Below the pieces are notes generated by a model. It did not search any database. It had not been told where the DNA came from and worked only from the letters and a program-made list of their open reading frames with translations. Below, piece by piece: positions 9,201-44,039 of a stretch of DNA of 64,000 nt. The translations under genes and the position numbers were made by a program. The stretch comes from Lysobacter enzymogenes. Its GTDB lineage: Bacteria; Pseudomonadota; Gammaproteobacteria; Xanthomonadales; Xanthomonadaceae. Within the stretch, counting starts at the first letter, position 1. Every line of letters starts with the position of its first letter. The stretch lies in NCBI RefSeq assembly GCF_900106525.1, contig NZ_FNOG01000003.1, forward strand, positions 1 to 64,000. Reading direction: 5' to 3'.

Positions 9201-9598
9201 GCGGCTTTGACGATCATCGACTGCAGCACGTAGCCGGTGCCGCTGAGCTGGCGGGTCAGCTCGTCGTGGCCGAAGGCGTCGCTGGCGAGCAGGTCGATGC
9301 CTTGGTGGAATTCGGGCAGGGCGAGCAGGTCCTGCGGGCGCTGGATGCGTTCGTCGACCGCGTCGATGCGGCGGATCAGGGCGAACAGGCGGTCTTGCGC
9401 GGATTCTTCTGCGGCGGGCGCGGGGTCGGCGGGCGTTTCCTCGGCGGCCGCGGGCGCGCTGTCGTCGCCGATGGCGGCGCTGGGCTCGGGCTGGATCGCG
9501 ACGGCCGGCGGCGCGGCCTGCGTTGCCGCGGCCGGGCGATAGAGGCGGGCGAGAATCAGGCCGGCGACGATGCCGACGAGGAATAGCAGGGCTTCCAC
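6233..9598 (-). CDS. Membrane-anchored Clp-type double AAA+ ATPase
   Basis: I place the start at GTG 9598 because GGAG lies 5 bases upstream; an in-frame ATG at 9670 lacks a site. This gives 1121 residues beginning with a membrane helix ([19 protein letters not shown]) and an Ala/Pro-rich linker. Domain 1 has Walker A GEHGVGKS near residue 300, but the usual hydrophobic-DE Walker B is not evident. Domain 2 is a complete ClpB/ClpA-type module: GPTGTGKT near 572, LLDEFEKAH near 640, FINRLDRVV with an arginine finger, and sensor-2 [12 protein letters not shown]-terminal extension of about 280 residues follows. No ClpP-docking IGL/IGF loop was noticed, so this is a remodeller of unknown substrate at the membrane. 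Codon use is typical of the chromosome. Confidence 0.85.
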
Positions 9599-9750
9599 AT
9601 GCGCTCCGGTGTCCGTTCCGGCGCACAGTTTAACGGCTGGGTCGCACGCGGATCGCGACGCAGGCTGCATCGTGGGTGTGGGTGTTGCGGTCGGCGCAGC
9701 GGGTGGTGAGTTCGCAGACGGGGCGCGGTGGGAGCCTGGACTTCAGAGCG

Positions 9751-21389: not shown

Positions 21390-22781
21390 TCAAGGATGCA
21401 ATTTACTGGGGTCACGCAGCGTTCTGGCGAACTGCCCCTTCGTATACGTCGGCAGGCTGACCGGGGGACTTAGAAGACTGAGCGCAGCCGACATCTTCTT
21501 CAGTGTGATTTCCTCCGGTTCCTCCTCGATATAGAACTTTTCGAGCGTAGGCGCTTCCGCGGTCAAGGTGTGTCCCGTGATCTTAGCGATCAGTGGCAAG
21601 GCCGCGCCCTTACGCTGCAATGTGGAAGAAACGAGATATCTGAAGCCATGGAATGACAGATATCGATCCGGCACGAACTGTCGCAGGTATGGGTTGAATT
21701 GCCTGCTGAATCCAGGCGCATAGCCCGTGCCATCGGGTTCGTCGGTCTTCGGGTTGATATGATGGCGAAGGTGCGGGAAAAGGCGGGAGTGAGGCAGCCG
21801 CTTGATGTCCTCTACGAAATCCAGAAGCCCCGCGTCCAATAGAGGTTGGGCGATCGGGATGATGCGAGCCGAAGACTTGCATTTCAGTTTCTGCCTGGAT
21901 CCATAGCCGCCTTTTCCGATGCGGTCGTCATCCGTAGTAATCCGGATATGAAAGCACCATATCCCATGAACGCATTCGACATCCTTGACCTTCAGCTGAG
22001 CGATCTCGTTGACGCGCGCGCCCGTGAATAGGCCGATCATTGGGATCCACCACAAGTGCGGAAGGGTCGCCCAATGGAGGAAGGTGTGACGGTCGAACAG
22101 GGCAGTCAGTTCGTTGTCTGTGAAGGATCGGCGCACTGTTGAGCGTTTTGCCCCGCCTACCTTCGTGTTAACGGCGTCGCACGGTGAATGTGAGATCGCG
22201 CGCTTCGTTTTTAGATGTTCGAAGAAGGTCGAGATGATCCGCATTCGGTAATGGATCGTGGAGTCAGCCGGCGGCGGTGTATTGGTGGCCCTACCTTCAG
22301 CCAGGATCTGCTGATCGGTCATTCCGCGCAATTCACGTCGCAGCAGGCGGGTGGAGGGCCACCACCGCATAGCATCCCAAAAGGCCACGATATGTTCGTG
22401 ATTGATTTGAGAGACGGGAACGTCCTCGCAGGACGCCAGAAAGATGCGCGCGGCTTGCTGGATGTTTCGCAGATGGCTGGTGCTGAGCCGACGTCGCTTG
22501 CACTCGTCTAGGTAGAGCCGCAGTTCCTGCGACAGCAGCCGGGTGGGAGCGGGATAAGGCAGGTCGGCCGGAAACATCGCATGGTTGCCGGTGCGTCGTC
22601 GCATGGTGCGTTCGAGCAGTGTTATGACGGTCTCGATGAAATTGATTGCGCCGTATCGATCCTTGATCTTGATGCCGCGCAGTCGCGCTCGACCGATTTG
22701 GAGCGTGTCGATGGTGAAGCCGACAGCATCAGGATCCCCAGCCTGCGGGTCTGACAGTTGGATGGCGGTGTTGATGTCCAC
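21390..22781 (-). CDS. Second tyrosine recombinase
   Basis: 463 residues, GTG start preceded by GAGG at 5 bases. The catalytic domain shows R in LFTGARVNEIAQL, H and R in FHGFRYL, H in ITGHT and a probable Tyr nucleophile in LEKFYIEEE. An N-terminal SAM-like region covers about 90-200. It is unlike the 12.9-kb integrase in length and sequence, and points the other way. It may be the remnant of a second element nested in the island, or a dedicated recombinase for a cargo segment. No matching att pair was found by eye. Confidence 0.9.
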   Translation of the reverse strand: MDINTAIQLSDPQAGDPDAVGFTIDTLQIGRARLRGIKIKDRYGAINFIETVITLLERTMRRRTGNHAMFPADLPYPAPTRLLSQELRLYLDECKRRRLSTSHLRNIQQAARIFLASCEDVPVSQINHEHIVAFWDAMRWWPSTRLLRRELRGMTDQQILAEGRATNTPPPADSTIHYRMRIISTFFEHLKTKRAISHSPCDAVNTKVGGAKRSTVRRSFTDNELTALFDRHTFLHWATLPHLWWIPMIGLFTGARVNEIAQLKVKDVECVHGIWCFHIRITTDDDRIGKGGYGSRQKLKCKSSARIIPIAQPLLDAGLLDFVEDIKRLPHSRLFPHLRHHINPKTDEPDGTGYAPGFSRQFNPYLRQFVPDRYLSFHGFRYLVSSTLQRKGAALPLIAKITGHTLTAEAPTLEKFYIEEEPEEITLKKMSAALSLLSPPVSLPTYTKGQFARTLRDPSKLHP

Positions 22782-24928: not shown

Positions 24929-25975
24929 ATGTCCGTGGAGCAGTATCGACGGGAAGTGGAGCGTCATCAGGACAGTGTGCGCAAGTTGCAGGCCGAAAAG
25001 GCGCGCGAGGTGTCCTACGCTGCGTCTGAGCGAAAGAAAGCCGGTGATGCAAGAGCGGGTGCCGCTAGAACATCATCGGTATCGACTGCGAGGACGAAAC
25101 TCAAGGATGCAGAACGCTACGATAGTAAGGCCGTCAGCCATGATCGACGGATCGCTGATATCGAAGGGAAGATCGCCAGGGCCAGCAAGCAGCAATACGA
25201 TGCCCAGGTAAAGCTTGGGAATGCTGAGAAGCAGGCCGCGCAGAAGCTGAGCAGAGAGAGGAAGCAGCAAGAACAAGCGGATGCTCGTGCGCGATCTGAG
25301 GTCAATGGGCGGCTATCAGAGCACGATCGTCTCCATCGTGCCGCGTTTCGCAGCATCCAGGATCTCCAAGCGCTTCCCGCGACCATCGGGGTCTTGTTCC
25401 TTGCCGCCAACCCGTTGGACCAGCAGCAGCTGCGATTGGATGAAGAGGTTCGCGCAATCGGCGAGATGATCCGTAAGTCGGAGCACCGGGATTCCGTGAA
25501 GCTCGAATCGCGATGGGCGGTGCGCCCGCTCGATATCCTTCAGGCACTCAACGAGTTCAAGCCGAGGGTGGTTCATTTCAGTGGCCACGGCTCCGAAGAT
25601 GGTGATCTTGTGCTTCAGGACGGCTCGGGCAATGCCAAGATGGTCTCTAAAGAGGCCATCGTGCAGACCATGATGACCGCGGCGGACGACATCCAACTCG
25701 TCTTCTTCAATACCTGTTACTCACGAGACCAGGCCGAAGCCGTGGTGGCGCATGTGCCGGCGGCAATTGGGATGAACACCGCGGTCGGCGATGACGCCGC
25801 ACGTGTGTTTGCCGCGCAGTTCTACTCGGCCATTGGGTTTGGCCTTTCCGTTGCAACCGCTTTCGCACAAGCCAAGGCGGCGTTGCTGCTGGAGGGGATC
25901 CTTGAGGATGATGTCCCAGAGCTATTCATCGCCGAGGGAATTGATCCAGCCGAATTGGTTCTGGTGAAGCCTTGA
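24929..25975 (+). CDS. Coiled-coil CHAT-domain protease
   Basis: 348 residues, ATG after GGGAGG at good spacing. Residues 1-145 are a charged coiled coil. Residues 150-345 form a caspase-like CHAT domain with the catalytic pair H220 (VVHFSGHGSEDG) and C263 (LVFFNTCYS). CHAT peptidases are used in bacterial defence as executioners or proteolytic switches, for example in gasdermin- or CRISPR-linked systems. No gasdermin-like or sensor NTPase partner is adjacent, and the upstream neighbour is a three-TM protein. A strong hairpin terminator follows at 26029. Confidence 0.88.
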   Translation: MSVEQYRREVERHQDSVRKLQAEKAREVSYAASERKKAGDARAGAARTSSVSTARTKLKDAERYDSKAVSHDRRIADIEGKIARASKQQYDAQVKLGNAEKQAAQKLSRERKQQEQADARARSEVNGRLSEHDRLHRAAFRSIQDLQALPATIGVLFLAANPLDQQQLRLDEEVRAIGEMIRKSEHRDSVKLESRWAVRPLDILQALNEFKPRVVHFSGHGSEDGDLVLQDGSGNAKMVSKEAIVQTMMTAADDIQLVFFNTCYSRDQAEAVVAHVPAAIGMNTAVGDDAARVFAAQFYSAIGFGLSVATAFAQAKAALLLEGILEDDVPELFIAEGIDPAELVLVKP

Positions 25976-31370: not shown

Positions 31371-33047
31371 CTAAGCGAAACTTCTTAGCAGCACCAAAAC
31401 CACAATCCCCAGGATCACCCAGCCGAACACGCCCAGCCCGCCACTTTGCGCAGGAGGCTGCGTCTGCGGTCGATGCGGCATGGTGCCGTGGGATGGCGGT
31501 GATTGATGGGTGGTTTGGCCGCGCATCCGATCTAGCACCTGGTTGTTCGCGCTTTTGGGCGTAGGCGGTGGCACTGGGTGCGTCGACGTGGGCGGGATGC
31601 GAGGGGAGGAGGACGATGGTGAGGTGTTTCGAGCGCTCACAGGCTTCACCCCCATCTCCCCGAGCACATGGGCGTTACGCGGCGGAGCCTTGGACGAGCC
31701 GCTGCCGCCGCGCAGGCGGAACTTGGCTTCCGCTTCCTCAATAATCTGTATCTGCCCGCGCTGACTCACCGTTACTGAAGCGCTTGTATAGCTCCGGCCG
31801 CGTGCCGCTACACCGTGATACACCGGGTCAACCAGTCCAGTCACGGACACCCATTTGCCGATCCAGTCTTTGGTGGGCGCGGAGGCGCCCAGTGCGTCCA
31901 AGCCGTCGGTCCAGATATTGAGCTTGACCGACGGACCATCCTGCCAGTTGGAGAAATTAACGAACAGAAACGGCTTCCTGGACCGTTTGGTGAGTTGCCG
32001 ATCCACTGCGACGATCCGGCCGATCAGTTCGATGCGGTTGCCCACCTGGGCGGCCACTTGTGCATACGACAGGGCATCACACACGGTATAAGCGCCCTGG
32101 TAGGCCTGTTGAGCCGCCGATGGCGCCGCCCCGAAGGCGACAACAATTTGAGGCACGCCTTTGCCTTGCAAGAACTCGGCAAGGCTCGGCGTTTGATCGA
32201 TGGGGGATGATGCGACTTGTGCGAGCTTCCTGGCCTCCGCGGCCACTGTGGGGAGCTTGAGCAATTGGGCAAAGACGGGCGAAGACCCTGGGTCGAGGTA
32301 ATCGTTACGCCGAAATACGACGGCATCTGGATCCGAGCGCGAAGTTCTCCAAATGCCGGGCTGGGCAATTAGGGCCTGAAGGGCGACATCCAGTGCCAAG
32401 AAGGAAAACCGATCGAGCGTCTCATTGAAGTAGGTGGCCGAGCGAGCAGGATGCTGAAAGTTCAGCTGGCCCAGTTCAGTGGCGCGTGCTCCCCGGAACG
32501 CCTCCACGAACATCCCGTCGTAGTCGATCAACTGGAGTGAGGCGCCTTGTGCTCCCACCATGACATTGCCCGGCTGGATGTCACCGTGGGCGATCTTTTG
32601 CCCCTCCAGATAGGCGCTGAGCTGAGTCAGCGACTGGCGGAGCTTACTTAGGGCGGTGGGGGTTGCGTGGTGGGCGTCGAGGAACTCGCTAAGCGTTTCG
32701 CCCGCCGCCCAGGCCATCTTGACGACCGGATACGGCCGCTTGTCGATGACGATCCCGTCGGACTGGAAATCGAAGGGTAAGAAGAACGGTGAATGGAGCT
32801 GCTTGATCTTGTCGGAGATCAGGCGGTAGCGCTTTTCGAGCTCGGGAGCTTCTTTGTGGAAGCAGCGCAGCGCGTAGCGCTTGCCTGCCGTGTCGATGGT
32901 ATAGGTGAGCGCAAAGCCGCCGCATAGGGCTCGGGGCATCCCAAGCGAGGTGGTTCGGACGGTGCCGGTCCGGAGCTCGGCGTCGCGCAGGGTTAGCTGC
33001 GGCGACGCCAATGCCTGGTTGTATTGTTCCAGCGTCGGGTAAGCCAC
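31371..33047 (-). CDS. Ser/Thr protein kinase of a TerY-P-type triad, tail-anchored
   Basis: I choose GTG 33047 (MAYPTLEQYNQAL, GGAG 5 bases upstream; 558 residues); a TTG at 33068 would overlap the phosphatase stop. The kinase domain occupies about 20-260. The catalytic loop HGDIQPGN (D156) and metal-binding DYDG (D177) are present, but the usual beta-3 lysine is replaced in YALRCFH. An OB-fold-like segment (IELIGRIVAVDRQL to YTSASVTV) follows, then a Pro/Ser-rich linker and a C-terminal membrane anchor (FGWVILGIVVLVLLRSF). With the PP2C and vWA genes it forms a phosphorylation triad, acting at the membrane. Confidence 0.88.
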   Translation of the reverse strand: MAYPTLEQYNQALASPQLTLRDAELRTGTVRTTSLGMPRALCGGFALTYTIDTAGKRYALRCFHKEAPELEKRYRLISDKIKQLHSPFFLPFDFQSDGIVIDKRPYPVVKMAWAAGETLSEFLDAHHATPTALSKLRQSLTQLSAYLEGQKIAHGDIQPGNVMVGAQGASLQLIDYDGMFVEAFRGARATELGQLNFQHPARSATYFNETLDRFSFLALDVALQALIAQPGIWRTSRSDPDAVVFRRNDYLDPGSSPVFAQLLKLPTVAAEARKLAQVASSPIDQTPSLAEFLQGKGVPQIVVAFGAAPSAAQQAYQGAYTVCDALSYAQVAAQVGNRIELIGRIVAVDRQLTKRSRKPFLFVNFSNWQDGPSVKLNIWTDGLDALGASAPTKDWIGKWVSVTGLVDPVYHGVAARGRSYTSASVTVSQRGQIQIIEEAEAKFRLRGGSGSSKAPPRNAHVLGEMGVKPVSARNTSPSSSSPRIPPTSTHPVPPPTPKSANNQVLDRMRGQTTHQSPPSHGTMPHRPQTQPPAQSGGLGVFGWVILGIVVLVLLRSFA

Positions 33048-33064
33048 TTTAGCTCCGCCAGTCG

Positions 33065-33784
33065 TCAAATCATCGCAATAACTAAGGTGCTGTCGTCTCG
33101 ACGCATGGCACCGATGTCGCGTTCCCGCTCTACCAGCTCTTCCAAAGTTGCCGCGTCCCTGATTTCCAGCAAACGCTCCAGCGCGCTAGCATCTCCAGAG
33201 TTCATGCGTGTGAGTAGCCAGGCCCCTAATGCGTCAGTCATACACAGCAAGAACACGGGACCTTGTAGGTCGCCACGCTTCCAGCTGGCTGTCACGACGA
33301 GCTCACTGCGGTCCTGCAGGAGGTCGGCATTGAGCTCGGCTTTGGTGGCTAGTAGGACTGGCTTCTCAAAGAACTGCTCCGCCGTGTCATAGGGCCACTG
33401 GCCCAACAGGACTTGACCGTCGGTGAGCGCCGCAAAACTGTCGCCGATACTGAGGATGTCTAGACGGTCACCATCGCGTTCTTGCGCAATCAACAACGTG
33501 GCAAAACTACCGCGCTCGAACGCTGCGGCTCGGGACCACGACAATAGTTCGGGATCGTGCAGATCGGCGAAGGCGGACACGCACTCCACGACGCCCTCAT
33601 GGGTGAAGCCGGTGTCCAGGAACCTGTCCACGAGCAGGCGCGACCAGCTCTTGGCATCGAAGGATTCAGAGGCCCCATCGGATACCACGATGCGTCCGCG
33701 CTCGGCGTCCACGCGGTAGGCATCCTCGTTATCGATCGGGGTGTCCGCGTGCTTGGGCACGCTGCCGTGGAACAGGATATGCAT
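33065..33784 (-). CDS. PP2C-type protein phosphatase
   Basis: 239 residues. The metal-binding aspartates of PP2C enzymes are visible in DNEDAYRVD, VVSDGASE, and the late RRDDSTLV motif, with SIGDSFAALTD in the core. It starts 4 bases after the vWA stop and ends just before the kinase start, so the three are one operon. It should reverse phosphorylation by the neighbouring kinase, as in TerY-P triads. Confidence 0.88.
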   Translation of the reverse strand: MHILFHGSVPKHADTPIDNEDAYRVDAERGRIVVSDGASESFDAKSWSRLLVDRFLDTGFTHEGVVECVSAFADLHDPELLSWSRAAAFERGSFATLLIAQERDGDRLDILSIGDSFAALTDGQVLLGQWPYDTAEQFFEKPVLLATKAELNADLLQDRSELVVTASWKRGDLQGPVFLLCMTDALGAWLLTRMNSGDASALERLLEIRDAATLEELVERERDIGAMRRDDSTLVIAMI

Positions 33785-33788
33785 GGGG

Positions 33789-34622
33789 TCAACGCAGCTG
33801 CGCAGCGCGCGTGCCGATATCGAAGAAGTCGACGATCTCAGTGACCTCCGCGTTGAACATGAAGCCGCGCGATTCCATCGTGGCCCGGATCCCTTTTTCC
33901 TCAGCGGCTTGATGGAGGTGGGGAGGCAATGGGCTGGACATCTGAAACAGCAGCCGGGCGTAGGCGTCAGGCAGGCCCGCGTCGGACGCCGGGAACTTGA
34001 CGGGGTCGCCGCCCGCGTTGCTTACATGCAGGTTGAACATGAGGATCGTGCCGTCGTTGGTGCCGATTTGCTGGAGCTGGGCCGCCAAGTTCTGGGGATC
34101 GCCGTCAGTCGACTCGCCGTCAGTCACATGTAAAACGGTCGGCGGATAGCTGTCCGGATGCGCATCGCACCAAGCGGCGAGTTGGGCCGCTGCCTCAGTG
34201 ATTGCGTGGCACATAGGAGTGCCGCCACTGGCCTTGGCGTCGAACCAGACGGGAAACTTGATCGACTGATTGACCAGTCCGCCGGCGCCATCGTCCATGC
34301 GGCGCGTCCGGTCCTCGACCCTTAGGGGGGAGTTCTCAATAGCAGAGATGGGGTGCATCACGATGTGAGAGAGCGGCCCGGCTAACCCGTTCTCCGCCGT
34401 CGAGCCCGAGTAGCCGAGGACGCCTACATGGAAGTAGTCGCGCGTGCCTTCCGATTTGGTGCATCGCGTGATTAGGGTGGCTAGAGTGCGGTTCAGCACA
34501 TCAGCAACGAATTGGGCCTTAGACTTCCCATTCGTCATCTGGTCCTGCATTGAGCCGGACTGATCCACAAGGAACAAGAAGGCGGTAGGAGTGGTGCGGC
34601 TGATCTCGGCGCTATAGCTCAT
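33789..34622 (-). CDS. TerY-like von Willebrand A domain protein
   Basis: ATG 34622 (MSYSAEISRTTPT) with GGAG upstream gives 277 residues. A vWA fold with an intact MIDAS site: D-x-S-G-S in FLVDQSGSM, the GGTPM threonine, and VTDGES. First gene of the triad with PP2C and kinase. In the TerY-P architecture the vWA protein is thought to be the phosphorylated adaptor that assembles a surface or stress complex. No TerC, TerD or TerE genes are seen in this window, so the triad may have been re-used, for example in phage defence. Confidence 0.88.
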   Translation of the reverse strand: MSYSAEISRTTPTAFLFLVDQSGSMQDQMTNGKSKAQFVADVLNRTLATLITRCTKSEGTRDYFHVGVLGYSGSTAENGLAGPLSHIVMHPISAIENSPLRVEDRTRRMDDGAGGLVNQSIKFPVWFDAKASGGTPMCHAITEAAAQLAAWCDAHPDSYPPTVLHVTDGESTDGDPQNLAAQLQQIGTNDGTILMFNLHVSNAGGDPVKFPASDAGLPDAYARLLFQMSSPLPPHLHQAAEEKGIRATMESRGFMFNAEVTEIVDFFDIGTRAAQLR

Positions 34623-34749: not shown

Positions 34750-35766
34750 TCAGGGCCAGAGCTTGAATGAGCTGCCCTCGTGGAATGCAGTTTTGGGTAT
34801 GTTGTCTGACGCCAGTCCATAACTGCGAAGCAGCCAGCGGGCGTTACCACCAACCTCCTTACCTACCTCGGACCTGCCGTGAAGCATTGTCCGGTTGTCC
34901 AGAATAACGATATCGCCAGCACCTAAGACGATTGGGTGGGCTACTTCCTCACAAGCCTGAGCTACTTTGACCAAGGCCTGCTCAGTGGCTTCTGGAGCGG
35001 TATAGGAAGGCGCTACATTGCTGTGGCTAAATCGCACCCAAAAATCGTTCACCCCTCGACTAAGAAGCACGCTCACGTCTTCGACTTGATGTGCATCGCC
35101 AAGCACAGCGATGGTGCCGTCTTTAAATGTGCCTTGGCACGTAATCAGGAACTGATCTTTCTTAAGCTGCTCGATATCTGCCTCATCGAGGCGAGACAGG
35201 ATTTGGCGAAGCGGGATGACCATCGTGGCAATGTCATCGGGATTGCGTAGCGCCGCTAGGCACACCGCATCTGGGGAAGGCGCAATCCGCGGGTGCCGAC
35301 TATCTTGCTGACCTGGGAAAGGAAAGCTCACTGCGTCGGTGTGGCCGCGCATGCCCTTGGTCGATTTTTCTGCGGATCGCCCTTGCCCTGGCATGGCAAC
35401 GAGGTTGACGAAGAGATGCCCATCGTTCTCAGAGCCATACGACACCGGCGCATGCCCCAAAAGCTGATTGACAGCCAATACCGTCAATCGTGCCGCATTT
35501 ACGGGCAGGCATATAGGAAGGGGAGCAAAACCCTTAGGAGAGTCCGGTAGCCCCGTCGCCGCATCAAACACACCCTTCAGATGCAGCAAACCATTGGTCA
35601 ATTGGCCGCGGGTGCTCTTTTCCAGGGTGGATCTAACGCTGGCGTCCAGATGCTGCAGGACGTGCTCGCCGATCGCGGCTGGGTCTTGGTCTATACGAGC
35701 AACCCATTGATCCGCATCGGTCTGTGCCAGGGTCTTGTCTACGGCCTGCCGGATCTCTACTTCCAT
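34750..35766 (-). CDS. TauD/TfdA-like Fe(II)/2-oxoglutarate oxygenase
   Basis: 338 residues, ATG with GGAAG 7 bases before. The facial triad is H141-x-D143 in MRGHTDAV and H296 in RTMLHGR, with the 2-oxoglutarate-binding arginine in ARWLLRSYG (R310 or R314). Family members hydroxylate small molecules or amino acids; the substrate is not deducible. It diverges from the 35857-37051 gene pair with a sigma70-like promoter in between. It is an odd enzyme for a defence island and might modify a metabolite or signal. Confidence 0.85.
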   Translation of the reverse strand: MEVEIRQAVDKTLAQTDADQWVARIDQDPAAIGEHVLQHLDASVRSTLEKSTRGQLTNGLLHLKGVFDAATGLPDSPKGFAPLPICLPVNAARLTVLAVNQLLGHAPVSYGSENDGHLFVNLVAMPGQGRSAEKSTKGMRGHTDAVSFPFPGQQDSRHPRIAPSPDAVCLAALRNPDDIATMVIPLRQILSRLDEADIEQLKKDQFLITCQGTFKDGTIAVLGDAHQVEDVSVLLSRGVNDFWVRFSHSNVAPSYTAPEATEQALVKVAQACEEVAHPIVLGAGDIVILDNRTMLHGRSEVGKEVGGNARWLLRSYGLASDNIPKTAFHEGSSFKLWP

Positions 35767-35856: not shown

Positions 35857-36462
35857 ATGTCGACGATATCCCCTGACATTGCCACGCTCGAAAAGAGTTT
35901 CCGAGATCGAGCCCAAGAACTAGCACATATTGCCAAAACGCTCCGCGTGACAGAAGTCAATGCTGGAAAGGTTTTGATTACTGCTCAAGGTGTCGGTAGT
36001 CGCGAAGTAAGCCTGACCAAAATCGATATGGATGTAGAGTTGGCTCGCTTTGCCGACCTTCTGCACCAGAAGGTCGCCGCTCATGTGTTGGAACTACGTT
36101 CTGGAACAAAGCAGCCAGCCAAGACCATCGGTGTCTGGGCTGGGGCGGATCTGTGGTCAGCGCTGGAACAGCGCGCGACGGCGGAGAGAGTGAAGCCAGC
36201 ACAAATTTATAGAGACCTGATGAAGCACGGTGTTCAGCAACTGGATGCGCGCTTGGACAAGGAGTCATCTAACAAGGTTTTTGCGGAGATGAGTGCCTTG
36301 CTGGACAGCTTTGTGGGAGCAGGAAAGGCTCAGAAGATGGTTCGGATCGATAAGAACTTCTACAACCGTGCCGTTTTCATCGCCAAAGAGTTTGGCAGGT
36401 CGCTGTCGGAGATTACGGGAATGTGCATTGTGTGTGCATTTGATCAACAGATTCGGCGCTGA
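35857..36462 (+). CDS. Hypothetical protein, possible DNA-binding regulator
   Basis: 201 residues from ATG 35857 (MSTISPDIATLEKS), GGAG 7 bases before. Mostly helical, with no membrane part. The region WSALEQRATAERVKPAQIYR resembles a ribbon-helix-helix or helix-turn-helix segment, and a similar pattern recurs near the end (FYNRAVFIAKEFGRSLSEI). First gene of a two-gene operon driven by the promoter at 35801. It may repress its own promoter. No confident family. Confidence 0.65.
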   Translation: MSTISPDIATLEKSFRDRAQELAHIAKTLRVTEVNAGKVLITAQGVGSREVSLTKIDMDVELARFADLLHQKVAAHVLELRSGTKQPAKTIGVWAGADLWSALEQRATAERVKPAQIYRDLMKHGVQQLDARLDKESSNKVFAEMSALLDSFVGAGKAQKMVRIDKNFYNRAVFIAKEFGRSLSEITGMCIVCAFDQQIRR

Positions 36463-36481
36463 TTTGTGGAGGAGGACAGGG

Positions 36482-37051
36482 GTGCACGATGACCTGTATC
36501 CCAGCTTTTCTGCTTTGGTTGCGCGGGAGCCTGTCGAAAGCTACGCGATTACGGTGCATCGGGGTTCCAATCCTGCTGTCGCCATCATTGCCCCGCACGG
36601 AGGCCAGATTGAGCCAGGAACTTCCGCTCTGACGCGTGCTATCGCGGGCTGCGATTATTCCTACTACTTGTTCGAGGGGCGGAAGGCAGAAAAAAATCGA
36701 GATCTGCATGTCACCAGCCATCATTTTGATGAGCCACAGTGCTTGGCCTTGATTAGCGATGCGACAACCGTGTTGGCTATACACGGATGCAGAGGGGAGA
36801 ACGCCATCAATGTTGGAGGACTGGATGCCCGTTTGGCAGATGACCTTTGCTATGCGCTGCGTAGCAAGGGTTTTCCCACTCATCGCCACGGGCATGCCTA
36901 TCCGGCTCATCAGCCAATGAACATCTGCAATCGTGGCGCTCGCCGTGCTGGCGCTCAGTTGGAACTGACCATGGATATGCGACAAGCCATGTGTGCCACA
37001 CAGATTTCGGCCGTGGTTCGCGAAGTGTTGGCGCAGGCTGGCGGGATGTAA
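36482..37051 (+). CDS. Poly-gamma-glutamate hydrolase-like zinc peptidase
   Basis: GTG 36482 is preceded by GGAGG and gives 189 residues (VHDDLYPSFSALVAREP). Motifs APHGGQIEPGTSAL, DLHVTSHHFDEP, AIHGCRG and RHGHAYPAHQP match the phage-derived poly-gamma-glutamate hydrolase (PghP, DUF867) family, which uses a zinc carboxypeptidase-like fold. It has no signal peptide, so it acts inside the cell or on lysis. It is 19 bp behind the preceding gene. Phages use this enzyme to cut capsules; its role here is unknown. Confidence 0.8.
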   Translation: MHDDLYPSFSALVAREPVESYAITVHRGSNPAVAIIAPHGGQIEPGTSALTRAIAGCDYSYYLFEGRKAEKNRDLHVTSHHFDEPQCLALISDATTVLAIHGCRGENAINVGGLDARLADDLCYALRSKGFPTHRHGHAYPAHQPMNICNRGARRAGAQLELTMDMRQAMCATQISAVVREVLAQAGGM

Positions 37052-37062
37052 TCAGCACCGCG

Positions 37063-37866
37063 TTAGAACTGCGTATCTCCCTTCGCCGCCTCACAGCGCA
37101 CCCGCTCCTGGTCTTTGACGTTCTTAAATGCCTGAGAGAAAGCAGCCGCCAAGATGCCCGTGGGCATTGCGATCAAGCCGATACCCGCGATGGCCGTCAG
37201 CGCTGCAAACACGCGCCCCAGGACCGTCTGTGGAACGGCGTCCCCATAGCCCACCGTAGTCAGGGTCGTCACTGACCACCAGATCGCCCGCGGAATAGAG
37301 CCGAAGGCTTCAGGATTGGTGTCGGCTTCCACGGAGTAGAGAACGCCCGCCGATAGCAGGATGACGCCCGCGGAGAGCGCCATGGAAAAGGTCAACTCGT
37401 AGCGGCGCTCCAGCACTGCTCCAAGCACGATGCGCATTGCCTGTGAGTATCGGATCAATCGGGACAGTGCCAGCAACCGGAACAAGCGCAGCAACCGAAC
37501 CAGTAAGGATTGGGCGCCCCATCCAAACAGGAAGGGGATGATCGCCAGAAGGTCGATCAGCGCGTAGAAGCTCAGTGCGTATCTGATCCGGCCGGAGATC
37601 CCTTGGTAGATGGGATTGGCCCCTATCGACCACAGCCGCATGAGGTATTCGAAGGAGAAGGCGATGACGAAGCCGGTCTCCAAGGTGCGCAACACGGGCC
37701 CAAACGCAGCGATCACCACGGGTTCAGTGCCCACCACGGCAACCGTCACGGACGTCAGGATGAGAACCACACTGACCAACTGAGTGGGGGTGAGCCCACT
37801 GGCGTCGCCACGCCCAAACAGAGCGACGTAGACCTGGCGCTGTAATCGCTCGTGCAGCGTGCTCAT
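37063..37866 (-). CDS. Voltage-gated potassium channel, last gene of the Shango-like operon
   Basis: 267 residues with six membrane helices. The S4 helix (about 121-141, LLVRLLRLFRLLALSRLIR) carries arginines at about three-residue spacing. The pore has the K+ selectivity filter TTVGYGD (203-209), followed by S6 ending in IAMPTGILAAAF. There is no large C-terminal regulatory domain. Its ATG at 37866 overlaps the helicase stop at 37863 by 4 bases, so translation is coupled to the Shango helicase. That makes it a candidate effector that depolarises the cell, or a voltage sensor, for this system; both are inference. Confidence 0.92.
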   Translation of the reverse strand: MSTLHERLQRQVYVALFGRGDASGLTPTQLVSVVLILTSVTVAVVGTEPVVIAAFGPVLRTLETGFVIAFSFEYLMRLWSIGANPIYQGISGRIRYALSFYALIDLLAIIPFLFGWGAQSLLVRLLRLFRLLALSRLIRYSQAMRIVLGAVLERRYELTFSMALSAGVILLSAGVLYSVEADTNPEAFGSIPRAIWWSVTTLTTVGYGDAVPQTVLGRVFAALTAIAGIGLIAMPTGILAAAFSQAFKNVKDQERVRCEAAKGDTQF

Positions 37867-40082
37867 GGCGATGAGGGGGCCTCAACAAGGGGCTGGACGC
37901 CGAATTTGGCGCGGATCCAGGTCATCGCCTCGTCTAGATCGATGTTGGAGCGCGCGTAAGTCTCCCGGAGCAACCGGGGCGAAAGCAGCTCGTCCCACTT
38001 CTGACGGGCCAGATTGCTGGCCTTGGCCAGCAGGTCATCGGCAGCAGGGATCGGCTCCGACCCGATGTCGGCCAGTAGATCGGCGATGTCGTTCAGGCTG
38101 CGATCAGAGCGCTGCACCTCCACCCCCAAGCTCGCGGCATAGGCCGTGGCGCCACGAGCTGTCAGCAAGCAGGCAATCGCCTCGTTGGCCGCGTCGCCGA
38201 GCCAGGTGAGCACCAAGGCGTCGCTCCCTTGGTCGAGCAGGAGCCTGTCTGCCAGTGCCAAGCCGTTGAACGCAGCCCGTCCCTCATCGAGAAAGCGCTG
38301 CGCCTGCGTGTCCAAATAACCGGGCGCATCATCGCCAAGGTAGAGTTCGCGCATGCGTTGGCGCACACGCGTATGGACCCGTCCCACGCCGCCACTGAAG
38401 AGCGGCGGTGCGCCGCCTTTGGTAGGCATCACATAGATGGTCTTGTGGGCTTCATCGATGTCCTGCACCTCCCAGGTCCGACCGCCGAACAGGATGCGCT
38501 GGCCGGGCGAGACCATCTGAACGATCGGCAGGGTTCCCAGCGCCTTGTCCCCTGAAACAATGCGGAACTCCTCATCGCTGGCAAAGGCGGCGTAGAACGA
38601 GTAGTGGTTGACGATCCGGTCCCCCACGCGTCCATGAAGCAACAGTCCGGAATGGTCCTGGGTCAGGATTTCCTTCTGCCCCAAGGTTCTGAGCAGTTCG
38701 GCGAAGCTTTCCTTGGAAATACCATCGAACGGAGCGTTCGGTGAGCAGAGCAGGGCGAAGGCCTGCCCGGCGCTGAGGCCGCCGTATTGGGCGATGGCTG
38801 ACAGCAACTGCTGGACCAGGGTGGAGTAGTGCGCGCCCCGCACGGCCGGCGGTTCGAACCAGTGCTCGATGAGCAGGGACACCACGGCCGCTGTCTGCAC
38901 GGTATCCGTCCGCAGCCGCGTCTGAAGGCCGGACGCCTCGTCCAAGGTGTCTTCGATCACATAGCCGCGCAGGATGGCCGGCTCGCCTTCGCGCCGGCCG
39001 GACCGTCCCAGGCGTTGCCGTAGGCTGGCCACCGAGGGCGGCACGCCGATCTGGACGACGCTCTTGACCGCGCCGATGTCGATGCCCAGTTCCAGGGTGC
39101 TGGTGCACACGGCTGAAGCCGGGCGCTCGCGTTGCTTCAGGGCGGTTTCGGTGTCGTAGCGGATTTCCTTGGACAGGTTGCCGTGATGTGGCCAGAACTC
39201 CGAGGGCACCCGAGCTTGATCACACAGCTCGTTCAGAAGGTGGGTGTAGCGCTCGACTTCCTGACGCCGATTGGGAAAGACCAGATTGTTCGATCCCCGC
39301 AAAACCTTAAACAAGTGCTGGGCAATGGCCTTCGAGGCTGGGAGGGTGTTCGGATCGACCTCCACTCCTGCCGCCCGCAATTCGGGCGGTTCCTCATAGC
39401 CCTTGACCTTGATCAGCAACTGCGAAGCGGCGGATCCCGTGTCGACGATGGCGGCGGATCGACCCGGTCGAAGGAACTGAGCGGCCAGGCCCATGTCGCC
39501 CAAGGTCGCCGACAGACCGATGCGTGGCACTGGGCGGCCCAACGCAACCTCGATGCGATGCAGTAGCGATTGGAGCTGCTTCCCACGTTCGGAGCCGATG
39601 AAGGCATGGAGCTCATCGACGATCACGAAGGTGGTGTTTTGGAAGAGGCCCGTAACACCGGTGCCGCGGTTGCATAAGGTGGCCTCCAATGACTCCGGCG
39701 TAATCAGCAGCACGCCTTTGGGTTTGGCCAGGAACTTACGCTTGCTGGTCGCGGTGATATCCCCATGCCAGGGCCAGACCGGGACATCGAGGTTCTCGCA
39801 CAATCGATCCAGGCGGCCGAACTGATCGTTGATCAGGGCTTTGAGTGGGCTGATGTAGACGATCAGGCCGGCCTGGGGCTGCTGGAGCAGATGGGTGAGC
39901 GCCGGGAGGAACGCAGCCTCGGTCTTTCCGGAGGCCGTGCTGGCCGCGACGATGACATCCTGGCTCGCCGGCAGGATAAGCGGGATCGCCTGTTCCTGGA
40001 CGTCGCGTAGCGCGCCCCATCCTTCGGACCACAAGTAGTGTTGGATCCGGGCATCCAGCTGCAGGAACGCTTGGGAGGCCAT
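37863..40082 (-). CDS. sngC: Shango helicase SngC (Lhr-like DEAD/DEAH helicase)
   Basis: 739 residues. Superfamily 2 helicase with motif I ASTASGKT (47-54), DELH box (156-159), SATLGD, a C-terminal RecA lobe with TSTLELGIDIG and QRLGRSGR, then a region with Lhr-like character. It starts 6 bp after the ATPase gene. In the described Shango system a helicase works with a TerB protein and an ATPase to block phage; the same three parts are here in the same order. The BREX subtype helicase BrxHI is also Lhr-like, but no BREX core genes are present. Confidence 0.85.
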   Translation of the reverse strand: MASQAFLQLDARIQHYLWSEGWGALRDVQEQAIPLILPASQDVIVAASTASGKTEAAFLPALTHLLQQPQAGLIVYISPLKALINDQFGRLDRLCENLDVPVWPWHGDITATSKRKFLAKPKGVLLITPESLEATLCNRGTGVTGLFQNTTFVIVDELHAFIGSERGKQLQSLLHRIEVALGRPVPRIGLSATLGDMGLAAQFLRPGRSAAIVDTGSAASQLLIKVKGYEEPPELRAAGVEVDPNTLPASKAIAQHLFKVLRGSNNLVFPNRRQEVERYTHLLNELCDQARVPSEFWPHHGNLSKEIRYDTETALKQRERPASAVCTSTLELGIDIGAVKSVVQIGVPPSVASLRQRLGRSGRREGEPAILRGYVIEDTLDEASGLQTRLRTDTVQTAAVVSLLIEHWFEPPAVRGAHYSTLVQQLLSAIAQYGGLSAGQAFALLCSPNAPFDGISKESFAELLRTLGQKEILTQDHSGLLLHGRVGDRIVNHYSFYAAFASDEEFRIVSGDKALGTLPIVQMVSPGQRILFGGRTWEVQDIDEAHKTIYVMPTKGGAPPLFSGGVGRVHTRVRQRMRELYLGDDAPGYLDTQAQRFLDEGRAAFNGLALADRLLLDQGSDALVLTWLGDAANEAIACLLTARGATAYAASLGVEVQRSDRSLNDIADLLADIGSEPIPAADDLLAKASNLARQKWDELLSPRLLRETYARSNIDLDEAMTWIRAKFGVQPLVEAPSSP

Positions 40083-40088
40083 CGCCGT

Positions 40089-41387
40089 TCAGAGCTTGAA
40101 CGATGCCAATTCGTCGTCTGCATCGACGGGCAGATCGCTGTCGCCCCCGTGATCGGCCTCGACCGTGACCTCGCCGATCAGGCTCTGCCAGTCCGTGCCT
40201 GGGTTCTGCTCCAGCACGGCGAGCAGGTTGATGAACGAGGTGATCGTGGTGCGAGGCGTGCGGAAGAAGCTGTCGCCTATGCGATTGGCGCAGTGCTCCA
40301 TGAAGGTGGCGATGGCGGGGTCGGGGAGCAGATAACGCGCGCTGTCGCCGGCGGCATAGACATGACGGATCTTGCCCAGGAGCAGGTAGAAGTCCTCCAG
40401 GGTCAGGCTCGACAAGCGCAGGACCGGTCCCGTGTAGTCGACCAACTCGCCGGTAGCGAAGGCGTTCTGGGCTAGGCGGCTTTGCAGTGCGGAATAGCTG
40501 TAAACGCCGCGGCGCGGATCCATCAAGAACTCGGGAGTGCCGCCCAGGACGAAGCCCAGGCCCACCGCGGTGCCTTGCAGGGAATCGTTGAGCATGCGCA
40601 GGATCTGCTCGTAGTTTGAGCTGCGCGCTTGTGCATTGGAGAGCTTGTAGATATTGACCAGCTCGTCCAGACATACGAACAGCCCGGAGTAGCCAGCCAG
40701 GCGCACAAAGCGAGCTACCAGCTTGAGCTGATCGTAGACGGAGGCGTCATCGACAATCGTCCTCACGCCTAACGCCGCGCGGGCGTCGGTCCGGGTCGAG
40801 AACTCACCGCGCAGCCAGCGGATGGCATCGGACTTCAGTTGCTCGTTGCCTTCCTCCGCACCCCGGCAGTAAGCGGCGATGACATCGGCGAAGTCGTAGC
40901 CGTTGACGAGTTCGGAGAGCTGTTCGAGCTTCGAGCGGATGACCTGTTCGGTCGTGCGGCTTTGCGCCTTGGCTTCGGACTTGGCCGTCGCGATGAACTT
41001 CTCCACCACCCCGGCCAACGCGCCGCCCTCGGGCTTGGTGCGAGTGGACAGGTTGCGCATGAGCTCGGCATACAGCGAGCGGGCTTGGCCTCCGGAAGCG
41101 TGGAGCCGCCGATCCGGATTGAGGTCCGCGCCGGCCACCACCAGCTTGCGCTCCATCGCGATCGCGCGGATGAGGTTCAGGAAGAACGTCTTGCCGGCGC
41201 CATACTCGCCAATGACGAAACGAAACGACGAGCCGCCATCGGCGACACGGTCGATGTCGGCGACCAATGCTTCGATTTCACGGCCACGTGCGACCTGGAT
41301 TAGGTGTTGACCGGCTCGGGGAACCACGCCGGCGCGCAGGGATTGGATGACGGTGTCGCGGTCCTTGGGACGAATAGGCGTGGTCAT
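40089..41387 (-). CDS. sngB: Shango ATPase SngB (BrxD-like P-loop protein)
   Basis: 432 residues of an AAA-type ATPase: Walker A GEYGAGKT (60-67), Walker B FVCLDELVNI (D241, E242), and sensor-like GGTPEFL. The sequence (RGREIEALVADIDRV, SSFRFVIGEYG) is of the BrxC/BrxD-like DUF2791 type. It overlaps the TerB gene by 4 bases and precedes the helicase by 6 bp, so the three form one operon. Confidence 0.85.
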   Translation of the reverse strand: MTTPIRPKDRDTVIQSLRAGVVPRAGQHLIQVARGREIEALVADIDRVADGGSSFRFVIGEYGAGKTFFLNLIRAIAMERKLVVAGADLNPDRRLHASGGQARSLYAELMRNLSTRTKPEGGALAGVVEKFIATAKSEAKAQSRTTEQVIRSKLEQLSELVNGYDFADVIAAYCRGAEEGNEQLKSDAIRWLRGEFSTRTDARAALGVRTIVDDASVYDQLKLVARFVRLAGYSGLFVCLDELVNIYKLSNAQARSSNYEQILRMLNDSLQGTAVGLGFVLGGTPEFLMDPRRGVYSYSALQSRLAQNAFATGELVDYTGPVLRLSSLTLEDFYLLLGKIRHVYAAGDSARYLLPDPAIATFMEHCANRIGDSFFRTPRTTITSFINLLAVLEQNPGTDWQSLIGEVTVEADHGGDSDLPVDADDELASFKL

Positions 41388-43846
41388 GCTTCAATTTTCT
41401 CAAGTAGTCCGGTGTTCACCGAAACGGGGTCGTCGCCTTCACACAGCGGCTCGTCAAAGGCATCGAAAGCCGCTTCATTGATCTGCTCCAAGGCGCCATC
41501 AAGCATCAGATCCAGGTCCGCTGCCGCATCTGCCAACTCAGCCCGCGTCCATTCCGGGCGCGATAGCAGCAGGCGTAGTAATGCCGCGTGGCTTTCATCC
41601 AGGCCGAGCAGAGCGGGGGCCTCTGGTGCCGGTTCCGGATCAGCAACTACAGGTGGCGGAGCGGCCACAGCTTCTTCAACGAAGATCTTCGAGAGCAACT
41701 CAGAGACGCGGGCGGTATCTTCTTGCAGGGCGGCGATGCGGGCGGTATCCAGTCGGAAGCCCTGCTTCTCGACCTGCGCGGTGGATACCGGCGCGCCGCC
41801 GGCGCCGACTGCATGGACATCGCTGAAGACCCGCTTGGGCTCGACCCCTAGCGCCTTGTAAACCTTCTCCAGGAACTTGACCTCCTCCGGAGAAACGAAG
41901 CCGTCGGATTGGGCCAATGCGACCATGGACGCGGCAAGGGCTTCTCGCGCCGAAACCGGAAGGGGTTCCAGCTTCTTTTTCATACCCGCCAAGGTAGGAG
42001 GAGAGCCGGTCAGCCATTGCAGGTGTGCCTGCAGTCGTCGCCTCTCTGCCGGAGTCAGATGCGACCAAGCGTCGATCTCGGTGCGCAGGTGAGCGATTTC
42101 CCGCTCGTTGAAGTCGCCATCGGCCTGGGCCATGGCCGAGGCCAGCTGTAGCGTGAGTGCGGCTGTCTGATAGTGCGCGGCCGTTCCTACTAGGGCATCC
42201 GTCATGGGCTGGGCGAAAAGGACTACCGTGTCTGTTTCCCCTGGTGCGCGGGCACCTGCCAGCACATGCGGCTCGAAGCCGATTTCAGCGCCCTCCAGTG
42301 CTCGCGCCAGTGCTCGCACGCGATCACGGTTGATCGGGCCTTTCCCAGCCCCCAGCGTGTCCAGCAGCTTTCGCAGGGACAGCGACAAGCGGCCTTCGCG
42401 CATTTGGTCGGTGAGACCTCGCAGGCGCGCCTGAGTGGCGGCCGGCCATAGGCTGGCGGGCAGCAGCAACAGTCCATCAAGGCCACCGGCTGCGTCAGGG
42501 TCTTTGCCGACGAGCCGGCTGTAAGCCCCGAGTTCATCGGTGCACTGGTTGGCGATTTCGGCCAACTTCTTGATGGGGGCGGTGAGGGCAGTGACATCCG
42601 GCGTGTCGCCGAAGGTCATCGAGATGTCAGCCCCGCGCATGCCGGATGAGGCGGCCTGGTAGGTGAACTTCAGTTTGGTTCGGTTCTTGGGCAGGACGAG
42701 CCCCGCGCCCATGACTTCTCGATAGCGCTGGACGAAGAGGCGCTCGAACTCGGCGGGACAGCGGGTCGCGGCTGTTCGCAGATGGGTCTCTGGGCTCAAC
42801 CGCAGCCACGCCAGAGCCAAATGGGCCGGCAGCGGAGCGCGCGCCAGTGAGGCTTGGCCAAGGGCCAGACGCACATAGAGAGGAAGCTCGTAGGTCCGCG
42901 GAAAGTCGGGGATAGGCTGGTCGTAGAGCTGGCCGGAGGAGGCTTGGCCGAGTTCGATCCAGCTCAGTAGCTCGCCGGCATAGCGTTTGAACGAATTCGA
43001 CTTGTCTCCGTAGATCGCAAGCAGCCGTCGAAGCTCACTGGTAATCGCCGGCCAATCGGCCTTGGCGGCGGGATCGTTCGCATCGACGATAATCCGTCGT
43101 TCCAGGCCATAGAAGAACAAGAACACATAACCGATATCGCAGTCGGGATGAGAGCGCCCTTCCGACAGCCAGGACAAATAGGCCCGCCGCTCGTTGGGGG
43201 ATGCCTCGGCATAACTGGGCCAGTAGCCCATCTGACGCTGGCGGTAATCGCCCGACTTGGCCACTGCGAGGTGGCTGTTGATGAGGCAAGGATCGACTGC
43301 GCCGGTGGGCGCTTTCAATCGCGAACCCACATAGATCATGCCTCCGACCAGGTCCACGTCGGCTACCCGCACATGCTCGCCGCGGGGAACCCAGCGGCCC
43401 TCCCCGAACCCCAAGGGAAGCTCAGGTAAGGGATGGGACGAGGGGCGCGTCGGTGGGCTGGCGGGAACGGCGTAGAACTCTTCGACTTCCTGCGAGCGAG
43501 CCCGCGGCGAGGGCGTGGATGAGGCCGTCGGTGAGGCCGTCGGGCTTGGCCTGGCGGATTGAGACGGTATCGCAGGTGCGGCCGGCGTCCGTGCAGGAGC
43601 AGGGGGCGAGTGCTTCGCGGTAAGTTCGGCCAGCGTCGGCTCGTGCCGCTCAGGCATCTGGGGGGAGGAGGGCTTAGCCGTGTTGGCCTGGGTAACCAGA
43701 AACCGGATAACTAAGTAGCTAATCCAGCCCAGCAGGCCGAGGACGCCTAGTCCGATCCAGACCTCTTTGGGCACCGCCAGGACTAGCGCCAGTGCGCCAA
43801 GGAAAAGCCACAGACCGGCCCCGCCACGAGACGAACGCTTTGCCAC
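41384..43846 (-). CDS. sngA: Shango TerB-domain membrane protein SngA
   Basis: I choose the second GTG (43846), which has AAGGAG 8 bases before it; the first GTG at 43852 is too close. 820 residues. Two membrane helices at about 10-50 (LWLFLGALALVLAVP and IGLGVLGLLGWISYLVIRF) and a Pro/Ser linker come first. A TerB_N-like domain with DVDLVGGMIYVG follows, then two TerB-like units (ALTLQLASAMAQADGDFNER and VALAQSDGFVSPEEVKFL) and a TerB_C-like end. First gene of the Shango-like operon and probably its membrane sensor or scaffold. Confidence 0.85.
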   Translation of the reverse strand: MAKRSSRGGAGLWLFLGALALVLAVPKEVWIGLGVLGLLGWISYLVIRFLVTQANTAKPSSPQMPERHEPTLAELTAKHSPPAPARTPAAPAIPSQSARPSPTASPTASSTPSPRARSQEVEEFYAVPASPPTRPSSHPLPELPLGFGEGRWVPRGEHVRVADVDLVGGMIYVGSRLKAPTGAVDPCLINSHLAVAKSGDYRQRQMGYWPSYAEASPNERRAYLSWLSEGRSHPDCDIGYVFLFFYGLERRIIVDANDPAAKADWPAITSELRRLLAIYGDKSNSFKRYAGELLSWIELGQASSGQLYDQPIPDFPRTYELPLYVRLALGQASLARAPLPAHLALAWLRLSPETHLRTAATRCPAEFERLFVQRYREVMGAGLVLPKNRTKLKFTYQAASSGMRGADISMTFGDTPDVTALTAPIKKLAEIANQCTDELGAYSRLVGKDPDAAGGLDGLLLLPASLWPAATQARLRGLTDQMREGRLSLSLRKLLDTLGAGKGPINRDRVRALARALEGAEIGFEPHVLAGARAPGETDTVVLFAQPMTDALVGTAAHYQTAALTLQLASAMAQADGDFNEREIAHLRTEIDAWSHLTPAERRRLQAHLQWLTGSPPTLAGMKKKLEPLPVSAREALAASMVALAQSDGFVSPEEVKFLEKVYKALGVEPKRVFSDVHAVGAGGAPVSTAQVEKQGFRLDTARIAALQEDTARVSELLSKIFVEEAVAAPPPVVADPEPAPEAPALLGLDESHAALLRLLLSRPEWTRAELADAAADLDLMLDGALEQINEAAFDAFDEPLCEGDDPVSVNTGLLEKIEA

Positions 43847-44039
43847 TGCCACTGCTCCTTGGCCATTTTGCGGCCCAGCGCCCCCCTAGGCGCCCGCTCC
43901 GAGCGAGCATACGCCAAGCCATACGGTGGCGCTGAGCGAGCTATCTCAGCCAGGTGAACCGGGGGCAGCGGGATTGGAGCGTAAATGGCGCCGTCAGGCG
44001 CCACGGCGAGAGAGACATACGCCAGCGCGGGCCTAGGTC

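What the first reader, a model, noticed from the sequence alone, without database searches (positions are those of the whole stretch)
31371..34622. vWA-PP2C-kinase triad without Ter structural genes
The gene set equals the TerY-P triad, but no TerC/D/E is present. The kinase has Arg at the usual beta-3 Lys position, an OB-like part and a tail anchor. Being next to a TerB-containing Shango operon, it may be a phosphorylation-controlled defence module.
Basis: partly seen in the sequence, partly recalled or inferred. Interest (0 to 1): 0.6.

Follow-up and report, generated by a model that had tools for sequence, protein, structure and literature searches.

The report
Stand-alone TerY-P antiphage phosphorylation triad
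Three bacterial genes for a metal-binding protein, a phosphatase and a probably membrane-anchored kinase form an already described kind of antiphage system that works without tellurite-resistance genes; the new details are an unusual but conserved arginine in the kinase and two repeated probable docking helices in its tail.

Summary
A vWA gene (33789-34622), a PP2C gene (33065-33784) and a kinase gene (31371-33068) lie on the minus strand, and PADLOC models TerY, PP2C and STK_OB match nearly their full lengths. The genome has no TerD-family gene; three TerC-family genes above cut-off lie on other contigs. Shango is no fixed partner: 2 of 42 related triad loci have it in the held flanks, 0 of 6 other Shango stretches have the triad. 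Arg at beta-3 is invariant in 42 of 42 clade kinases: a family trait. New anatomy: an SSB-like OB domain (weak fold match); a tail motif in two or more copies in 24 of 36 non-redundant tails against 0.06 in shuffles; a transmembrane-like or amphipathic C-terminus in 33 of 42. Preferred mechanism, inferred: a membrane-held, nucleic-acid-gated kinase switch reset by PP2C.

The parts
33789..34622 (-). TerY-like vWA protein, 277 aa; MIDAS residues D20, S22, S24, T135, D168
   Evidence: PADLOC TerY 6.7e-160; these residues invariant in 40/40 and 27/27 aligned relatives that passed a length filter; that they are the MIDAS set is from the DxSxS...T...D pattern
33065..33784 (-). PP2C-type phosphatase, 239 aa; conserved aspartates D36, D115, D184, D230, D231 at the places of PP2C metal ligands (assignment recalled)
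   Evidence: PADLOC PP2C 1.5e-87; these residues invariant in 41/41 and 24/24 that passed a length filter
31371..33068 (-). protein kinase-OB (STK_OB) with probable membrane tail, 565 aa; starts at TTG overlapping the PP2C stop, or at GTG codon 8
   Evidence: PADLOC STK_OB 2.4e-217; model mean pLDDT 85; protein-kinase fold
32865..32867 (-). codon of Arg68 at the beta-3 Lys position
   Evidence: aligned with the Lys of IKK-beta; Arg 42/42 in the clade, 19 Arg and 15 Lys in 34 more distant kinases
32565..32588 (-). catalytic loop HGD..N (residues 161-168)
   Evidence: H161, D163 and N168 invariant in 42/42 and 34/34
32514..32525 (-). DYDG (residues 182-185) at the DFG position
   Evidence: invariant in 42/42 and 34/34
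31707..32087 (-). OB-fold domain (residues about 328-454), SSB-like
   Evidence: model pLDDT 94; best PDB matches Stn1-Ten1, nucleic-acid-binding lipoprotein 3f1z and bacterial SSBs, E 1e-4 to 1e-3 but TM-scores only 0.36-0.50 of the query
31650..31676 (-). tail motif copy 1, NAHVLGEMG (residues 465-473)
   Evidence: motif and shuffles; helix 466-473 in the model, low pLDDT
31521..31547 (-). tail motif copy 2, NNQVLDRMR (residues 508-516)
   Evidence: helix 507-519 in the model, low pLDDT
31386..31442 (-). C-terminal hydrophobic segment (residues 543-561), probable tail anchor
   Evidence: mean hydropathy 2.57 over 19 residues; helix 547-564 in the model

Best explanation
It is a stand-alone TerY-P (kinase-OB) antiphage module (identity about 0.95). 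Proposed mechanism: the kinase is held at the inner membrane by its C-terminal helix. Its SSB-like OB domain binds nucleic acid exposed during infection and switches the kinase on. The kinase then phosphorylates the highly conserved vWA hub and/or other proteins, and infection is blocked. PP2C keeps the pathway off in healthy cells and resets it. The two short helices in the kinase's disordered tail dock onto a partner (vWA, PP2C or the kinase itself), and the Ser/Thr two residues before such a helix may be the switch. Shown here: gene set and order, conserved MIDAS and PP2C aspartates, kinase and OB folds by prediction, conserved motif and tail, sporadic distribution. Inferred: ligand, substrates, docking partner, membrane topology and outcome for the phage.
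For: Nearly full-length PADLOC matches to all three genes. Held papers report the kinase-OB triad as antiphage (passages) and TerY-P as active against T7-like phages (passage). OB closest to SSB and telomere OB folds, with weak sequence matches to RPA14, MCM and a nucleic-acid-binding lipoprotein (E 0.02-0.3). YabT, a DNA-activated kinase with a C-terminal TM helix, is rank 7 among Foldseek matches (abstract), though many kinases score alike. Catalytic Asp/Asn/Asp invariant; MIDAS and PP2C residues invariant. vWA is the most conserved of the three in 39 of 39 loci (median 65% against 41% and 39%), consistent with a hub. Tail motif: 24 of 36 non-redundant tails with two or more copies against 0.06 in shuffles; Ser/Thr at -2 in 35 of 56 copies against 20% background. 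TM-like or amphipathic C-terminus in 33 of 42. Neighbours of related triads include Avs2, Gabija, Shango, Septu ATPase and type IIG R-M matches (82 of the 199 neighbour ORFs listed, 12 of 29 loci, no control set). Not found at full length in 19 of 19 other same-genus genomes; 5 of these 19 have weak matches over part of the kinase only.
Against: No activity was tested. Arg at the beta-3 Lys position often disables kinases in the laboratory (recalled). No conserved Glu appears in the predicted C-helix. OB matches are weak (TM-score 0.36-0.50) and include tRNA synthetases, and OB folds also bind proteins (the last point recalled). 9 of 42 kinases show no C-terminal membrane feature by the rule used; of these, L049 and L053 have an internal hydrophobic stretch and L045 is borderline. 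6 of 42 tails lack the motif, and the one copy counted in L061 lies in its hydrophobic tail. The motif regex and the amphipathic thresholds were written after seeing the tails.
Confidence: 0.5

Rival explanations
1. The kinase is a pseudokinase: Arg68 cannot support phosphotransfer, and the protein acts as a nucleotide- and nucleic-acid-binding scaffold for vWA and PP2C.
For: Arg at beta-3 in 42 of 42, no conserved C-helix Glu.
Against: HGD, N and DYD are conserved (H161, D163, N168, D182, D184 in 42/42 and 34/34), and more distant relatives have Arg or Lys (19 and 15 of 34), with several changes between the two on the tree. A PP2C gene accompanies the kinase in 40 of 42 loci; the others are L048 and the cut contig L057.
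Confidence: 0.2
2. The triad is a regulator of the neighbouring Shango operon, phosphorylating TerB-containing SngA.
For: Nearness in the window and in L024 and L040.
Against: 40 of 42 other triad loci have no Shango in the held flanks. 0 of 6 other Shango stretches hold the triad, though two of those contigs are under 9 kb. A dioxygenase gene, two plus-strand ORFs and the ion-channel gene separate the two operons.
Confidence: 0.07
3. It is a metal or tellurite stress switch of the classical Ter type rather than a defence system.
For: TerY-type vWA with conserved MIDAS; TerY-P triads are described as involved in tellurite resistance and hypothesized to be metal-sensing (passage).
Against: No TerD-family gene in the genome; TerC homologues lie on other contigs and belong to a family common in control genomes; kinase-OB rather than the zinc-ribbon form.
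Confidence: 0.08
4. It is a general stress or housekeeping phosphorylation switch, and island placement is incidental.
For: A sister clade sits beside ordinary genes at a shared location in small-genome bacteria (L056, L057, L081, L128: same kinds of downstream genes, DUF502-like and PQQ-dehydrogenase-like; names recalled).
Against: The window's type is sporadic (2 of 369 class genomes at E 1e-60: the window's own and one over the kinase part only), lies near defence genes, and is reported antiphage.
Confidence: 0.15

Closest known systems
Stand-alone TerY-P of Gao et al. 2020 (PADLOC TerY, PP2C, STK_OB)
   Same: All three proteins match the models nearly full length, kinase fused to an OB fold, stand-alone
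   Different: Nothing found that sets the window copy apart from its clade. The Gao paper itself is not held, so its copy could not be compared directly
CoCoNuT-linked TerY-P triads
   Same: vWA, PP2C and kinase triad (passages)
   Different: Those kinases end in a zinc ribbon and accompany cnuHE operons; here an OB fold; CoCoNuT genes were not searched for by model
YabT of Bacillus subtilis (works-like comparison)
   Same: Protein kinase with a C-terminal TM helix and a nucleic-acid-binding part (abstract); Foldseek rank 7
   Different: YabT binds DNA by a basic juxtamembrane stretch, not an OB fold; no vWA partner is named in the abstract
Shango
   Same: Neighbouring defence operon in this window
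   Different: A separate system; co-occurrence is occasional

Membership tests
Stand-alone TerY-P (kinase-OB) | TerY-like vWA gene with conserved MIDAS | tested here: met
Stand-alone TerY-P (kinase-OB) | PP2C gene with the conserved aspartates | tested here: met
Stand-alone TerY-P (kinase-OB) | Kinase fused to a C-terminal OB fold | tested here: met
Stand-alone TerY-P (kinase-OB) | Three genes adjacent in one direction | tested here: met
   window; relatives (all three genes in 39 of 42)
Stand-alone TerY-P (kinase-OB) | Antiphage activity | not testable with these tools
   reported for the kind in PMC11090510 and PMC7699616 (passages)
Hanks-type protein kinase | Protein-kinase fold with catalytic Asp, Asn and DFG-position Asp | tested here: met
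Hanks-type protein kinase | Beta-3 Lys | tested here: not met
   Arg68, 42 of 42 in the clade
Hanks-type protein kinase | C-helix Glu | tested here: inconclusive
   no Glu conserved at 90% in the predicted C-helix; no coordinates to check the pairing
Tellurite (Ter) cassette | TerD-family genes | tested here: not met
   0 matches in the genome; control genomes ring in 2 of 14
Tellurite (Ter) cassette | TerC linked to the triad | tested here: not met
   3 TerC-family genes above cut-off and 1 match below, all on other contigs
CoCoNuT-associated TerY-P | Kinase ends in a zinc ribbon | tested here: not met
   OB fold instead

The most novel reading that the evidence does not exclude
The triad is a nucleic-acid-gated kinase switch at the membrane that uses an Arg-based ATP site and two phospho-switchable docking helices to toggle between vWA and PP2C. 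A sister clade has coupled the same switch to a ZorA2-ZorB2 motor (five loci, triad directly followed by ZorAB), i.e. a Zorya-type sensor with a kinase output; no ZorE is among the PADLOC families shown for its flanks (25 of 48 families shown).
Probability: 0.2. Interest if true: 0.65.

Novelty: new member of a known kind. Interest (0 to 1): 0.33.

Why it matters
What may matter is the family-level anatomy: an invariant Arg where kinases have Lys, a vWA far more conserved than its partners, an SSB-like OB domain, a membrane-prone C-terminus and twin tail motifs. Four literature searches on the triad listed no paper whose title or opening abstract reports an experimental mechanism for it; one search was swamped by unrelated hits, one search returned nothing, and most subscription papers are not held. 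The features above make direct tests possible.

Tried and rejected
Shango as partner: rejected by occurrence. A constant fourth gene: clustering 1,228 mechanical ORFs from 81 stretches (80 loci and 26 kb of the window) found none shared by most loci; the 9-locus cluster is a mix of ABC ATPases (8 members looked at). Membrane tail swapped for ZorAB: at first 5 of 5 ZorAB-linked kinases lacked a tail while 33 of the 37 others had one by the rule, but two further members of that clade, L128 and L129, have neither ZorAB in the stretch fetched nor a tail (no ZorA2 in their genomes, a call in which nothing rang as a control, though the same model rang in 5 of 5 genomes). So tail loss is a clade trait, not a strict swap. 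That L128 and L129 belong to the clade rests on identity (48% and 49% to clade kinases), not on the tree. Tail motif in the more distant kinases: no enrichment (9 of 34 with at least one copy against about 6.9 expected). Same motif near the C-terminus of the small ORF after ZorB: seen in 3 loci, not in the versions in L054 and L057. Aminoglycoside-type kinase, suggested to me by HGD (recalled): the fold matches shown are protein kinases. Phage carriage: no vWA match in the phages collection; plasmids: 2 partial kinase matches, both cyanobacterial. Zorya with kinase in print: a four-term search listed no paper.

Limits: the relatives come from one scan whose six seed peptides include one from tail motif 2, a small bias towards motif-bearing loci. 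107 stretches encoded relatives and the best 80 were kept. L042, with a broken kinase frame, was dropped before the kinase counts, leaving 42 of 43 (window, L021-L061, L081). Rows outside length limits were dropped before the vWA and PP2C counts (67 of 69 and 65 of 69 kept). One search scanned 82 of the 199 neighbour ORFs listed, from 12 of 29 loci, shows 25 of 67 families, and has no control set. ORF calls in loci are mechanical.
Full report
What is there. On the minus strand of the window lie three adjacent genes: a vWA protein (33789-34622, 277 aa from its ATG), a PP2C phosphatase (33065-33784, 239 aa) and a kinase (31371-33068, 565 aa). PP2C and kinase overlap by four bases. PADLOC models match them as TerY (6.7e-160), PP2C (1.5e-87) and STK_OB (2.4e-217), nearly full length. 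General libraries see them only weakly: Pfam gives a VWA hit just over its cut-off and sub-threshold PP2C and kinase hits; NCBIfam gives only a LanKC hit far below its cut-off for the kinase and nothing for the other two.

What kind it is. PMC11090510 (passages) states that TerY-P-like modules with the kinase fused to an OB fold instead of a zinc ribbon were shown to be stand-alone antiphage systems by Gao et al. 2020. PMC7699616 (one passage) gives protection against T7-like phages. The two papers asked for by DOI, Gao 2020 and (from memory) Anantharaman 2012, are not held. So a triad without Ter structural genes acting in defence is published. This genome has no TerD-family gene and one STK_OB gene. 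Three TerC-family genes above cut-off, and one match below, lie on other contigs; that family is above cut-off in 8 of 14 control genomes.

How common. Full-length STK_OB is in 1 of 60 genomes searched around the window, the window's own. 22 of the 60 have some match at E 0.001, but the other 21 are weak and cover only part of the kinase; 0 of 19 other same-genus genomes have a full-length one. In the class, 2 of 369 genomes pass E 1e-60: the window's own and one over the kinase part only. A scan of genome contigs gave 80 loci. The OB-type set used below is the window, L021-L061 and L081; L042, whose kinase frame is broken, is left out of kinase counts, which leaves 42 kinases. Of the 42 other loci of this set (L042 included), 39 carry all three genes; L054 and L057 are cut by the contig end upstream, and L048 is a lone kinase.

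Kinase. The model has mean pLDDT 85 and a protein-kinase fold; the 50 VIA-align rows shown, PDK1, PKR and others, lie at Z 15.1-16.2 with rmsd 3.6-4.4 A over 233-253 residues and are close to ties. Arg68 aligns with the catalytic Lys of IKK-beta. It is Arg in 42 of 42; in 34 more distant kinases it is Arg in 19 and Lys in 15. The tree needs about six changes for the Arg label, at least three by well-supported branches. H161, D163, N168 and D182-Y183-D184-G185 are invariant in all 76. Arg is therefore a standing feature of an otherwise conserved site. Whether it transfers phosphate is not shown.

OB domain. Residues 315-457 folded alone reach pLDDT 94. The best matches are Stn1-Ten1, a nucleic-acid-binding lipoprotein, several bacterial SSBs and MCM, with tRNA synthetase OB domains also present (E 1e-4 to 2e-3 in the 50 rows shown, TM-score by query length 0.36-0.50). 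Profile matches in sequence are weak (E 0.02 and up; 7 listed, most of them nucleic-acid binders by name). Nucleic-acid binding is likely, not shown.

Tail. After the OB domain comes a disordered stretch (mostly pLDDT under 50) with two short predicted helices, 466-473 and 507-519. They coincide with two copies of one motif, N465 and N508. In 42 tails, 29 have two or more copies, 7 one and 6 none; in 36 non-redundant tails, 24, 7 and 5, against 0.06, 1.6 and 34.3 in shuffles. The single copy counted in L061 lies in its hydrophobic tail and is probably spurious. Ser or Thr stands two residues before the Asn in 35 of 56 copies (35 tails) against 20% elsewhere in the tails (p 4e-12); in the window this holds for copy 2 but not copy 1. 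More distant kinases show no enrichment. The pattern was written after seeing the tails. The C-terminus is a transmembrane-like helix in 18 of 42, an amphipathic helix in 15 and neither in 9 (thresholds chosen by me).

Partners. The MIDAS residues D20, S22, S24, T135 and D168 are invariant in 40/40 and 27/27 vWA proteins, and the PP2C aspartates D36, D115, D184, D230 and D231 in 41/41 and 24/24 (after length filters). The vWA protein is the most conserved of the three in 39 of 39 loci, median 65% identity to the window against 41% (kinase) and 39% (PP2C).

Surroundings. GC is 0.55-0.68 in 2-kb steps from 12 to 58 kb and 0.66-0.73 on both sides, with a phage-type integrase at 21390-22781 and Shango at 37863-43852: an acquired island is likely, its ends not tested. 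Around related triads PADLOC finds Avs2, Gabija, Shango, Septu ATPase, type IIG R-M and candidate systems (82 ORFs of 12 loci, no control set). Shango itself is near 2 of 42 other triads (L024, L040); in the class 7 of 369 genomes have SngB, and only the window's also has full-length STK_OB. 0 of 6 other Shango stretches hold the triad. The two systems share islands; they are not a unit.

A sister clade. Five related triads (L054, L056, L057, L059, L081) form one group in the tree (100/94) and are directly followed by ZorA2 and ZorB2 matches (ZorA2 to 2e-129, ZorB2 to 1e-89), with a small ORF behind that ends with or near the tail motif in three of them. Two further loci of this kind have no ZorAB. 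This does not change the reading of the window but hints that the switch can be coupled to a membrane sensor.

Mechanism. I commit to a membrane-held kinase gated by nucleic acid through the OB domain, acting on the vWA hub and other targets and reset by PP2C, with the tail helices as docking sites. Parts and folds are shown or predicted; ligand, substrate, docking partner and outcome are inferred. Confidence is about 0.95 for identity and about 0.45-0.5 for the mechanism.

Noticed in passing
window 37063-37866 (-): A voltage-gated-type ion channel gene (Ion_trans 3.7e-30) overlaps the end of sngC by 4 nt (ATGA), as if a fourth gene of the Shango operon; no homologue found in L024, L040 or six other Shango stretches.
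   Followed up: partly
L054:13-4460, L056:8392-14027, L057:81-3701, L059:8385-14270, L081:8392-14051: TerY-P triad directly followed by ZorA2-ZorB2 and a small ORF in five loci (L054 and L057 start inside the operon at the contig end); two related loci, L128 and L129, lack ZorAB.
   Followed up: partly
L046, L047: Two adjacent vWA genes precede PP2C and kinase, and the kinase tail lacks the motif.
   Followed up: no
window 24929-25975 (+): CHAT-domain protein matching PADLOC candidate PDC-S66 over its first 134 residues (9.9e-13).
   Followed up: no
window 34750-35766 (-): Fe(II)/2-oxoglutarate dioxygenase related, below cut-off, to clavaminate synthase and arginine hydroxylases, just upstream of the triad; no tblastn match in the 80 related loci.
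   Followed up: partly
window 36293-37051 (+): Poly-gamma-glutamate hydrolase family protein (PF05908, 5.3e-50).
   Followed up: no
window 6233-9670 (-): 1145 aa ORF with a DolB-like part (1.4e-28).
   Followed up: no
window 21390-22781 (-): Phage-type integrase inside the lower-GC stretch.
   Followed up: no
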